A stretch of DNA of 64,000 nt from Nitrospira tepida (GTDB taxonomy: Bacteria > Nitrospirota > Nitrospiria > Nitrospirales > Nitrospiraceae). Where the stretch lies: the NCBI RefSeq assembly GCF_947241125.1, contig NZ_OX365700.1:3752001-3816000 (forward strand). The letters run 5' to 3'. The notes beneath the pieces are model-generated. The model was not told the DNA's origin, did not search any database, and saw only the letters and a list, made by a program, of their open reading frames with translations. This document shows positions 37,709 through 63,201 of the stretch, one piece after another. The translations under genes and the position numbers were made by a program. Every line of letters begins with the position of its first letter. The first letter of the stretch is position 1.

Positions 37709-37997
37709 TTCATTTCATTTCCTTCAACATTCCCGCAGGGTTGCTGCGCTGACCTTACCGTAACCATCCTCGAATCTCAACGGCCCTGCCACCCGTGCCC
37801 CTGATAACCATTCCACCGCTCCCATGTTTATTCGATTGGTTTATCCGATTGTCTCGGCACCGTATCGAAGTCGATACACCCTAGAATCCTTTGGACCCCT
37901 CCGCGCCGGTCCATTGGTCGCCTCAAATTTGCTATGTGCTTGAGACTTCAATCATTCTCATGAAATGAACCCATTTCCGTCTTGCCGGCTCTATCTT

Positions 37998-57319: not shown

Positions 57320-58579
<1,260 letters not shown>

Positions 58580-59831: not shown

Positions 59832-60017
59832 ATGCGGGTATATATTTTTTCATGCCAGGACTGTCAAAAACCCCAAAGATTGTCTCTGGCCCATCGCGGC
59901 GAATCAGGGCAACGCGGTACATGTTGGGTGAAAAAGCTCCGAGAGCCTCTTCTCTACGGGACCGAGCAAGGCACTCTTGCCGCCCCGATCCCTCGCTGCA
60001 CTCAATTCCCTACATGA
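59832..60017 (+). pseudogene. Possible zinc-ribbon remnant
   Basis: The frame begins MRVYIFSCQDCQKPQRLSLA, like the first knuckle of small zinc-ribbon proteins, but the second knuckle is missing (a single Cys in RGTCWVKK) and the rest has no pattern. No ribosome-binding site is visible. Either a decayed gene or chance. Confidence 0.3.
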
Positions 60018-60053
60018 ATCTGTTTCGATACAGAGTTTATCTGTTTGGATACA
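60018..60053 (+). promoter_or_regulatory. Paired upstream activator sites
   Basis: Two 15-bp copies, ATCTGTTTCGATACA (60018) and ATCTGTTTGGATACA (60039), are 21 bp apart, i.e. on the same face of the helix. Each contains a TGT-N6-ACA near-palindrome. They lie about 105-140 bp upstream of a consensus sigma54 promoter, the usual position of enhancer-binding-protein sites. Confidence 0.65.
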
Positions 60054-60158
60054 CGCCACTGGTCCATCACCCGTTGGAGTGAGACACCTCGATTCCTAAC
60101 CGCTCAAAAACCTGAATATGATTCCATTCGGACAGGGCGTCACTCTGCCTTCGGATCG

Positions 60159-60174
60159 TGGCACCGTGATTGCT
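60159..60174 (+). promoter_or_regulatory. Sigma54 promoter, full consensus
   Basis: TGGCACCGTGATTGCT matches TGGCAC-N5-TTGCW at every fixed position; GG and GC are ten bases apart. Transcription would begin near 60185, giving a leader of about 115 nt before the metalloprotease start at 60302. Confidence 0.75.
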
Positions 60175-60301
60175 CTTTTACGTGAAGCTGTTGCGCTCGG
60201 GACGGGAGCGTGGCGGCCCGCACAGGGTTGTTTAGCCCAAATCATCTCGCCATCACTATCATTCGCCCATTGATCAATCAACCACTAAAGGAGGCGACAC
60301 T

Positions 60302-62578
60302 ATGAGTCCGGATCCCACCAGAATGGAAAGCAGCAGCTCGATCGCAGAGGACTTGGAATTGGATGATCTCGCTCGACTGGCTCTGTCCGAGGTCCACGAA
60401 AGGGAGGAGCAGACGGAGACGGCGGAGTACGACGCGACAGCGGACACGGCCGCGAAGGCCAAACCGGCCATCACCGCCGCCCCGATCGCGCCACCCCTGC
60501 CCGTCACTCCGATCAAGATACTTCGCCGGCGGGTGAGCGGCCGGTATCGGAGCAGCGGCACGGGGTTCCAATTGGAACTCCGCATGGATGTGGACGGGTC
60601 TCGGCCGACCAACCGGTTCAGCGGCGACTTTTTCAGCACCAGCGGGTCAACCTCCGCCTATTTCGGCTCCTTTATCGTGGCTGCCCCAACGATCTCTGTG
60701 ACGGCAACGCAGGCGACCATCGAGGGCATCGGCCAGTTCACCTGGTCCACCGCCTATCAGAAGGTGAAGGTGACGATCCCGCGGACGCTGATCTTTTCGC
60801 CGCCCGGCAGCGCGACGGTACAGTTTGCAACTCCGTCCGGCACGGCCGGGGCGAGCTATCTCTGCCCGTTCGTCTCCGCCTATTTCCGCACCGTGCAATG
60901 GGAGCAGGATTGCGTGCAGGGCACGGTCCCGTTCGTGTCGTACAACACCGGGTCGCTTCCGCAACCAGCCACCAGTCCGGTCCGGGACCTCGGCGTGGCC
61001 AAGGCCTACGCGGAGGCCGGCATCGAGATGCAAACCGCCGGCATGGCAAACATCGTGAACAGCTCCGAAGCCGGCCCGAACGCCAAGTGGAGCGATTCGG
61101 AATTACACGCCGCGATGGTGAATAACTTCAGCCTCTGGGCGAACATCCCGCAATGGAAGGTCTATCTGCTGGTCGCCACCGCTCATGAAGGCGGGTATCG
61201 CGGCATCATGTTCGACTACGCCGATGCCTTCCAGCGGCAAGGCTGCGCCGTCTTCTACGACGCGATCAAGGGCACCGACGCGGCGACCCAGCGCGCCCAG
61301 CTCCGCACCTACGTGCATGAGCTGGGCCATTGCTTCAACCTGCTCCATTCATGGCAGAAGAATCTGGCGAACCCACCGGCGCCGCTCGGCCCCAACGGCG
61401 GCCTGGGCGATCTGTCGTGGATGAACTATGCCTGGCAATATCAGCCGCCCCCGCCGGCCCCCGGCGGAGAAGCGGCCTATTGGGCGAACTTCCCGTTCCA
61501 ATTTACCGACAACGAGATCGCCCATCTCCGGCACGCGTTCTACCGCAATATCATCTTGGGCGGAAACGCCTTCGCGACGGGAGCCGCCGAAATCGACCCC
61601 ATGCTGTTCGCGGACGCCGTCGAGGATTATTCTGGTCTACAGCTCGAACTGCGCGCGAGATCGGCCTTTGCCTTTGGCGAACCGGTGGTCGTAGAGATCA
61701 AGCTCTCCACCACGGACACGAGAGGACGACACGTGCATACGTTCCTCCACCCGAACACGACCATGGTCCAGATCGCCATCCGGCAACCCTCGGGCCGAAC
61801 CCTGCTCTATCGCCCGATGATCGAGCACTGCGTCGACGAGGAGCGGACGACGAAGCTCGATCCCGACCAACCGGCCGTCTACGAGAGCGCCTACATCGGA
61901 TACGGGAAGGATGGATTCTATTTCGAGCAGCCCGGCGCCTATCAGCTCCGCGCCATCTATGTCGCGCCGGACGGATCGCGCGTCGTGTCCCCGACGTTGA
62001 CGATTCGGGTCCGCTCGCCCCATTCGGCGGCCGACGAAGAAGTGGCTGAGTTGTTGATGGGTGACGAACAGGGCAAACTGCTCTACCTGCTCGGGTCGGA
62101 CTCCGACGCGCTGAAGCGGGGCAACGAAGCGTTCGATGAGCTGCTGGCCAAGCACGGCAAGCATCCGCTCGCCGTCTATGCGAACCTGGTCAAGGGCATC
62201 AACGCCGGACGCGACTACAAACGGCTGGCGGCCGACAGGCCGGATAAAACGGTCTCGGTACGCAAAGCGGAAGCGGGAGAAAGCATCCAGCAATTGTCGT
62301 CCGTCGCCGAAGCATCGGCCGGCGAGCGGGGCGTGGACAACATCACGCTGAACATGGTCATCCGCCGCATCGCGCGCGCCCAGAAGAAGGCGGGCGATCT
62401 CGACAGGGCGGAAGCCACCCTCGACCGGATGGTCGAGACGTTCAAGAGAAAGCAGCTCAAGCCGCAGGTGTTGCGACGGATCACGGCTCAGGCGGAGGCT
62501 GAAAAGGCTTCGTTGGGGTTGGGAGGCCATTCCGGCGAGAGCAACAACAACGGCCGTCGGGCGAGGCGGAAACATTGA
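60302..62578 (+). CDS. Metzincin-like zinc metalloprotease with C-terminal helical repeats
   Basis: 758 aa with AGGAG before the ATG. Residues 1-75 are acidic and disordered; no signal peptide is visible. Residues 80-190 look like a beta-sandwich. The zinc motif HELGHCFNLLH (HExxHxxGxxH-like, with N in place of G) is near residue 340, and a Met-turn WMNYAW lies about 40 residues on, as in metzincins. A second beta-rich domain (about 445-575) and TPR-like helices (about 580-740) follow. The companion gene at 62686 resembles the second beta domain. It may be secreted by a signal-less route. Confidence 0.8.
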   Translation: MSPDPTRMESSSSIAEDLELDDLARLALSEVHEREEQTETAEYDATADTAAKAKPAITAAPIAPPLPVTPIKILRRRVSGRYRSSGTGFQLELRMDVDGSRPTNRFSGDFFSTSGSTSAYFGSFIVAAPTISVTATQATIEGIGQFTWSTAYQKVKVTIPRTLIFSPPGSATVQFATPSGTAGASYLCPFVSAYFRTVQWEQDCVQGTVPFVSYNTGSLPQPATSPVRDLGVAKAYAEAGIEMQTAGMANIVNSSEAGPNAKWSDSELHAAMVNNFSLWANIPQWKVYLLVATAHEGGYRGIMFDYADAFQRQGCAVFYDAIKGTDAATQRAQLRTYVHELGHCFNLLHSWQKNLANPPAPLGPNGGLGDLSWMNYAWQYQPPPPAPGGEAAYWANFPFQFTDNEIAHLRHAFYRNIILGGNAFATGAAEIDPMLFADAVEDYSGLQLELRARSAFAFGEPVVVEIKLSTTDTRGRHVHTFLHPNTTMVQIAIRQPSGRTLLYRPMIEHCVDEERTTKLDPDQPAVYESAYIGYGKDGFYFEQPGAYQLRAIYVAPDGSRVVSPTLTIRVRSPHSAADEEVAELLMGDEQGKLLYLLGSDSDALKRGNEAFDELLAKHGKHPLAVYANLVKGINAGRDYKRLAADRPDKTVSVRKAEAGESIQQLSSVAEASAGERGVDNITLNMVIRRIARAQKKAGDLDRAEATLDRMVETFKRKQLKPQVLRRITAQAEAEKASLGLGGHSGESNNNGRRARRKH

Positions 62579-62655: not shown

Positions 62656-62685
62656 TTGCCCGGCAAAGGTGGTCCTGCTCGTTCT

Positions 62686-63201
62686 ATGGCCATTGTGACG
62701 CTGACATTGCACGGTCCGGATCGGCCGCTGACGCTTGGATCGCCGGTGCCGATCAGGATCGAGGTGAAGAACGTCTCATCCGGCAGCGTCTGGATGGTCG
62801 GGGTCCTGGACGGATCGGAAACCGGCACCCGCTATCCGCATTATCTTCCGGAAATCAAACTCGGCGGGCGAGCCATCGCGAATCCGCCGGTCCCGGAAGA
62901 CCCATTGGTAAGCCCTCTGCGTCTGGCGGACTTTCACCTGCTCCAACCGGGAGCCGGATTCGATCCGACGACAAAAGCCGGAGCGTCCTACCTTCCAGTC
63001 AGCACCTTCGCCAATTTCCGCCCATCCCTGCCGGGTCGCTATGAATTCCAGCTTGTACTCTCAACCGAGAGCAGAAGCCCGGATCAGTGGTTGGGAAAGT
63101 TCGGACAGGATGTTGAACGGGCCGCGGTGCTGGACCGGCTGGGATTGATCCCCAAATTCACCGTCACCTCGAATCTGCTTGTGGTCGAGGTGCGGGGATA
63201 A
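62686..63201 (+). CDS. Companion beta-sandwich protein of the metalloprotease
   Basis: 171 aa from ATG 62686 (MAIVTLTLHGPDRPLTLGSP). The pattern GSPVPIRIEVKNVSSGSVW and RPSLPGRYEFQLVLS resembles the GEPVVVEIKLS...GAYQLRAIYV part of the upstream protease, suggesting related Ig-like folds, perhaps an inhibitor or accessory binding domain. No signal peptide. No close family known to me. Confidence 0.65.
   Translation: MAIVTLTLHGPDRPLTLGSPVPIRIEVKNVSSGSVWMVGVLDGSETGTRYPHYLPEIKLGGRAIANPPVPEDPLVSPLRLADFHLLQPGAGFDPTTKAGASYLPVSTFANFRPSLPGRYEFQLVLSTESRSPDQWLGKFGQDVERAAVLDRLGLIPKFTVTSNLLVVEVRG

What the first reader, a model, noticed from the sequence alone, without database searches (positions are those of the whole stretch)
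60018..60174. Textbook sigma54 control region ahead of a metalloprotease
A full TGGCAC-N5-TTGCT promoter is preceded by two near-identical TGT-N6-ACA sites 21 bp apart about 120 bp upstream. This is the geometry needed for an enhancer-binding protein and DNA looping. It implies that the protease operon responds to a specific signal.
Basis: partly seen in the sequence, partly recalled or inferred. Interest (0 to 1): 0.65.

Follow-up and report, generated by a model that had tools for sequence, protein, structure and literature searches.

The report
Sigma54 enhancer of a hydrolase regulon
The DNA ahead of this predicted zinc protease gene looks like a genuine sigma54 switch, and its two upstream boxes are copies of a control signal that this bacterium and its relatives place in front of many genes, including genes for degrading and effector-like enzymes.

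Summary
TGGCAC-N5-TTGCT (60159-60174) is the window's only perfect sigma54 site, the genome has rpoN and 31 full activator domains, and two near-identical 15-mers lie 21 bp apart upstream. The exact box occurs 20 times in the genome (reversed control 2). In three genomes partner boxes sit 20-23 bp away, and 42 of 56 box clusters have a sigma54-like site 35-200 bp away (shuffles: mean 4.0, maximum 11). All 13 full-length homologues of the protease in a sister genus carry the same layout. Other targets encode Tle1-like phospholipases, a subtilase, a nuclease, caspase-like, TIR and other enzymes. The box is enriched in one order, little beyond it. The same sequence is published as the RhpR site of Pseudomonas, not linked there to sigma54 activation. 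The cognate activator is not identified. The protease is closest to actinobacterial proteins (58%), so a horizontally acquired gene may have been brought under a resident regulon. No expression data exist.

The parts
60016..60031 (+). distal upstream activator box, GAATCTGTTTCGATAC (1 mismatch to GTATC-N6-GATAC)
   Evidence: the same GAATC...GATAC variant occurs as distal box ahead of Tle1-like genes in relatives
60037..60052 (+). proximal upstream activator box, TTATCTGTTTGGATAC (1 mismatch), 21 bp from the first
   Evidence: the same TTATC...GATAC variant occurs as proximal box in relatives
60053..60158 (+). 106-bp spacer, taken to be the DNA loop; no IHF-like consensus found
60159..60174 (+). 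sigma54 -24/-12 promoter TGGCAC-N5-TTGCT; predicted start near 60185
   Evidence: start inferred from -12 spacing
60302..62578 (+). 758-aa predicted metzincin-type zinc protease (HELGHCFNLLH, residues 339-349; downstream Met374); no Pfam or NCBIfam match over cut-off; AGGAGG ahead of the ATG
62656..63201 (+). 181-aa ORF 77 bp downstream, possibly the second gene of the same operon
   Evidence: position; no Pfam match; operon is inference
37862..37877 (+). another exact box of the same kind in the window, GTATCGAAGTCGATAC, with TGGTATGAAGCTTGCG 119 bp downstream

Best explanation
60016-60174 is a sigma54-dependent control region. RNA polymerase with sigma54 sits closed on 60159-60174. A dimeric enhancer-binding protein binds each of two GTATC-N6-GATAC-type boxes, two helical turns apart on one face, oligomerises when activated, loops over the 106-bp spacer and melts the promoter with ATP. 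The protease gene, and perhaps the ORF after it, is thereby transcribed together with some 20-30 other targets per genome that carry the same box, many of them hydrolases or effector-like enzymes. Shown here: promoter, boxes, phasing, genome-wide association with sigma54-like sites, conservation ahead of homologues. Inferred: binding by an enhancer-binding protein, looping, activation, shared timing. Unknown: which of the 31 activators, and the signal.
For: Spacing scan GTATC-N(1-12)-GATAC in the genome: 20 places at N6, 0 at N7, 0-3 at other spacings except N3 (11 places with one repeated sequence; the window copy lies in an IS110-type transposase gene). Partner boxes with up to 3 mismatches cluster at offsets 20-23 (56 hits; 0-2 at every other offset from 16 to 60) around 68 exact boxes. 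Tandem pattern: 16 matches, 13 distinct places, reversed control 0; the window pair is one of them; 11 of the 13 have a sigma54-like site scoring 13 or more. 42 of 56 box clusters in three genomes have a sigma54-like site within 35-200 bp, against 5.4% of random positions and 4.0 of 56 in shuffles, maximum 11; at score 15 or more 13 against 0.1. 13 of 13 full-length homologues in genus g14 (28-29% identical over the full alignment, about 32% in the matched part) have two boxes 23 bp apart and a sigma54-like site further on. 12 of 19 Tle1-like genes in ten genomes have a box within 700 bp upstream, against 1.2% of random 700-bp stretches. rpoN present; 31 full activator domains.
Against: No expression or binding data. 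Both window boxes are imperfect. 14 of 56 clusters lack a sigma54-like site at my threshold, and 7 of 19 Tle1-like genes lack a box. No activator gene could be tied to the box: none of the 30 activator loci scanned for it holds an exact box, one holds a 1-mismatch box. The promoter score, its threshold and the distance range are mine. The very same box is published for RhpR, a response regulator not described in the passages read as a sigma54 activator.
Confidence: 0.85

Rival explanations
1. The boxes are bound by a RhpR-like two-component response regulator that is not a sigma54 activator, and the sigma54 site is used with a different activator or is incidental.
For: RhpR of Pseudomonas syringae binds exactly GTATC-N6-GATAC by footprint, gel shift and ChIP-seq (passages of PMC4191427; of PMC6426608).
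Against: Here the boxes are strongly tied to sigma54-like sites at enhancer distance and phased in pairs; the RhpR passages read describe no such link. Whether this genome has an RhpR orthologue was not tested.
Confidence: 0.1
2. One reading: TGT-N6-ACA palindromes are the activator site of a protease-specific switch.
For: Both cores are present and spaced 21 bp.
Confidence: 0.03
3. Chance: an isolated consensus match with no role.
For: Relaxed sigma54 matches are no more frequent than chance in the window.
Against: Perfect promoter, tandem boxes of a genome-wide class in the right order and distance, no ORF of 100 or more residues over the site, same layout ahead of homologues.
Confidence: 0.02

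Closest known systems
RhpR inverted repeat GTATC-N6-GATAC (Pseudomonas syringae RhpRS)
   Same: Identical consensus and spacing (passages of PMC4191427)
   Different: There the site of a response regulator with no sigma54 activation described in the passages read; here tandem, 20-23 bp phased, and tied to -24/-12 sites
PrsR/PEP-CTERM sigma54 regulon
   Same: Many scattered genes share an upstream box plus a -24/-12 element and a presumed sigma54 activator (passages of PMC1569441)
   Different: That box ends in TTTACA; TTTACA is absent on either strand of 59900-60158, and no PEP-CTERM match was found in the protein
FlrA-type enhancer sites yGTCA-N6-TGACr (DVU2894, FlrA)
   Same: Inverted repeat with an N6 core proposed as site of a sigma54 activator (passage of PMC4641369)
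   Different: Other half-site sequence; linked to flagellar control
Metzincin zinc proteases
   Same: HExxHxxxxxH and a conserved Met 25 residues after the last His, invariant in 17 aligned sequences
   Different: No family model over its cut-off for the window protein; a paralogue hits matrixin and archaemetzincin models weakly; predicted structure too poor to use, mean pLDDT 45.9

Membership tests
sigma54-dependent promoter | GG at -24 and GC at -12 in TGGCAC-N5-TTGCW | tested here: met
sigma54-dependent promoter | rpoN in the genome | tested here: met
   PF04552, one match at E 3.4e-57
sigma54-dependent promoter | transcription lost in an rpoN mutant; start about 12 nt after the -12 element | not testable with these tools
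   no expression data
sigma54 enhancer (UAS) of a common activator | dyad site recurring upstream of other sigma54-like promoters of the genome | tested here: met
sigma54 enhancer (UAS) of a common activator | identified cognate enhancer-binding protein | tested here: inconclusive
   five-genome comparison leaves one orthogroup (L011) but its tree is not clean
RhpR regulon | GTATC-N6-GATAC box | tested here: met
   two 1-mismatch copies in the window control region, 20 exact in the genome
RhpR regulon | rhpRS operon in the genome, autoregulated by the box | not tested
PrsR/PEP-CTERM regulon | 17-nt motif ending in TTTACA upstream of the -24 element | tested here: not met
   (TTTACA looked for, not the whole motif)
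metzincin protease | HExxHxxxxxH zinc motif and Met-turn methionine | tested here: met
   H339, E340, H343, H349, M374 invariant
metzincin protease | metzincin fold | tested here: inconclusive
   model of low confidence; no solved relative by sequence

The most novel reading that the evidence does not exclude
An order-wide sigma54 regulon in which one activator, through tandem GTATC-N6-GATAC boxes, switches on a battery of lytic and effector-like enzymes (Tle1-like phospholipases, subtilase, nuclease, metzincins, caspase-like, TIR, patatin, papain, peroxidases), serving antagonism, scavenging of dying neighbours or programmed death, and which recruits horizontally acquired enzymes by placing its box in front of them, as with the actinobacterial-type protease in this window.
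Probability: 0.25. Interest if true: 0.75.

Novelty: new member of a known kind. Interest (0 to 1): 0.5.

Why it matters
It turns one promoter into a defined, testable regulon with a written box, a fixed phasing and a list of targets. The held library, by the searches, showed me no description of this box as a sigma54 enhancer. If the enzyme list means what it looks like, these bacteria have a coordinated lytic or effector response that has not been assayed.

Tried and rejected
PrsR/PEP-CTERM control was my first guess and failed on the box. TGT-N6-ACA as the site was tested and dropped. Naming the activator: the 31 own activators were compared with those of G017 (29 of 31 matches taken), G107 (26 of 28), G172 (23 of 25) and G055 (36 of 38 matches, in 35 stretches); the two lowest-scoring matches of each genome were dropped. 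Only L011/L134/L167 has reciprocal best hits in the three box-rich genomes and none in the two box-poor ones, but the tree does not group them as a clade and their recognition helices resemble those of L017-type proteins present in all five; kept as a lead only. One search was a first, incomplete version. No activator gene lies next to an exact box in the own genome; in G017 the nearest are about 3.5 and 5 kb away. The structure prediction was too poor for a fold search. Sequence search of solved structures gave only insignificant FimG hits. PADLOC gave generic caspase, subtilase and TIR-type hits for 5 of 10 proteins and nothing for the window protease. Of 12 loci that match only the C-terminal domain of the protease (L054-L062, L064-L066), 4 have a box upstream and 8 have none, so that domain alone does not mark the regulon.

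Full report
OBSERVATION. The sequence at 60000-60300 was read directly. TGGCACCGTGATTGCT stands at 60159-60174 and is the only exact TGGCAC-N5-TTGCW of the window; with two mismatches allowed there is no excess over shuffles, 22 against 27.1. In a weighted scan of both strands it is the top site of 64 kb, 16 of 16 points. The whole genome (4,731,961 bases, one contig) holds 13 exact sites and 3 matches to the reversed pattern. The two 15-mers are at 60018-60032 and 60039-60053 with one difference. One rpoN and 31 full activator domains plus two weak relatives are present. No ORF of 100 or more residues covers the promoter. The downstream ATG at 60302 follows AGGAGG.

THE BOX IS NOT TGT-N6-ACA. 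Reading the DNA upstream of the 13 perfect sites of the genome and of a paralogous protease gene showed GTATC-N6-GATAC. A scan of all spacings from 1 to 12 gave 20 places at N6, none at N7 and 0-3 at the others, except N3, which had 11 places with a single repeated sequence; the window copy of it lies in the IS110-type transposase gene. The reversed control for all spacings together was 10 per strand against 48. The window has GAATC-TGTTTC-GATAC (60016-60031) and TTATC-TGTTTG-GATAC (60037-60052), one mismatch each.

TANDEM PHASING. Around 68 exact boxes in three genomes (own, G017, G107), partner boxes with up to three mismatches were counted at every offset from 16 to 60: 6, 16, 27 and 7 at 20, 21, 22 and 23, and 0-2 at every other offset. 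A tandem pattern that asks for the right half of the first box and ATC-N6-GATAC of the second gives 16 matches, 13 distinct places, in the own genome and none in the reversed control; the window pair is one of the 13. 11 of the 13 have a sigma54-like site of score 13 or more 35-200 bp away, the other two 12.5 and 12.

LINK TO SIGMA54. 56 clusters of exact boxes were examined: 17 own (all 20 boxes), 21 in G017 (all 25 boxes), 18 in G107 (23 of its 32 boxes). 42 of 56 have a site of score 13 or more on one side; random positions in the same loci 5.4%; 100 dinucleotide shuffles of the same flanks mean 4.0, maximum 11. At score 15 or more the numbers are 13 against mean 0.1, maximum 1. Distances from box end to -24 are mostly 52-157 bp; the window's 106 fits. 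The score rule and the range are mine, and the random positions are not restricted to intergenic DNA.

CONSERVATION. The protease has full-length homologues in 13 genomes of genus g14 (29 genomes of that genus are among the 175 family genomes searched; 20 of 175 have any match). All 13 carry two boxes 23 bp apart (one box of L052 with a mismatch) and a sigma54-like site of score 13-14; in the one examined (L221) a 99-aa ORF lies between promoter and protease. A second paralogue group has one exact box and a sigma54-like site in 4 of 4 relatives; the own copy has the box but only a 12.5-point site. As an independent test I took all Tle1-like genes (PF09994) of ten genomes chosen for many boxes: 23 matches, 19 genes. 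12 of 19 have a box with up to one mismatch within 700 bp upstream, 8 of 19 an exact one; random 700-bp stretches 1.2% and 0 of 4000. In three of them (G073, G107, G108) the pair is GAATC-N6-GATAC then TTATC-N6-GATAC, the same two variants in the same order as in the window.

BREADTH. Exact boxes per genome: own 20; genus g14 14-38; g4 25; g16 1-32; g17 0-10; g19-g21 0-1; reversed control mostly 0-3. In a sample of 245 genomes of the phylum the excess also appears in a second family of the same order (10-25 in g24-g27, 1-6 in g23); elsewhere box and control are mostly alike, with a few genomes at 6-10 boxes.

TARGETS. First genes downstream were picked by promoter side, start codon and ribosome site, a few by hand, which is rough. 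30 chosen proteins were scanned; 6 of these 30 (L089, L120, L121, L228 and two of L236) lie behind boxes whose best site within 200 bp on that side scored under 13. 20 of 30 have a Pfam match above cut-off: Tle1-like catalytic domain (3), vanadium chloroperoxidase N domain, subtilase, DNA/RNA endonuclease, patatin, polysaccharide deacetylase, caspase (2), ShlB/POTRA, tyrosinase, MauG-type peroxidase, TIR (2, one with nSTAND), DUF2278, autotransporter, PLAT, papain, PHB esterase. One more has a sub-threshold matrixin hit; nine have none. I did not compare this list with a background list of genes, so the theme of degrading and effector-like enzymes is an impression, backed statistically only for the Tle1-like family.

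THE PROTEIN. H339, E340, H343, H349 and M374 are invariant in 17 sequences, which is the zinc motif and probable Met-turn of metzincins (family knowledge). No signal peptide is apparent by eye. The best relative in one-per-species genomes is in Virgisporangium ochraceum, 58%; records of Nonomuraea and Embleya in the plasmid collection hold 53% and 46% relatives, while sister-genus homologues have about 32%. Horizontal origin is likely but no tree was made; GC of the gene is 63.3% against 61.8% for the window.

HOW IT WORKS. Shown: promoter, boxes, phasing, association and conservation. Inferred from knowledge of sigma54: an activator dimer per box, oligomerisation, looping over 106 bp, ATP-driven opening. 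The activator is not known. The profile over five genomes leaves one orthogroup of FhlA-like proteins (the FhlA likeness is from recall) but the tree and near-identical recognition helices weaken it.

COMPARISON. The string GTATC-N6-GATAC is in three papers of the held library, all on RhpRS or Pseudomonas signalling (passages of PMC4191427 and of PMC6426608; PMC7691447 seen in the listing only). The PEP-CTERM box differs (passages of PMC1569441). A Nitrospira quorum-sensing paper co-expressed rpoN; the passages read do not mention this box (PMC8553950). Passages read of the sigma54 surveys PMC12316311, PMC3162934 and PMC4641369 and of the response-regulator study PMC3333781 show no such box; their supplements were not read. 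Other papers appear only in search listings.

VERDICT. A well-supported sigma54 control region, correctly spotted, with the activator box misread by a few bases; it belongs to an apparently undescribed, order-wide regulon. Kind known, instance new.

Noticed in passing
window 37862-37877, promoter-like site about 37997: A second box of the same regulon with TGGTATGAAGCTTGCG downstream, ahead of a very short membrane-peptide-like ORF; a response-regulator-receiver ORF lies further down.
   Followed up: partly
window 57332-58579 (+): IS110-type transposase gene; the 13-mer GTATCGCCGATAC inside it occurs 11 times in the genome, probably copies of the element.
   Followed up: partly
L092 (own genome 4030000-4045000), L094: Four perfect sigma54 sites (three in L092, one in L094) have a different upstream repeat around GGTTCAC/TTCACGG; one activator gene (L023) lies within L092, suggesting a second regulon with its own activator.
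   Followed up: no
L305; own genome 850730-850756: Tandem box found only by the relaxed pattern, with TGGCACAGGTGTTGCG downstream (score 15); target gene not identified.
   Followed up: partly
L041 (G030:C108): The g14 homologue of the protease in this genome has an internal TAG, so the copy looks broken there.
   Followed up: no
L221:1772-2068: A 99-aa ORF of unknown family sits between the sigma54-like site and the protease gene in the sister genus; the window lacks it.
   Followed up: partly
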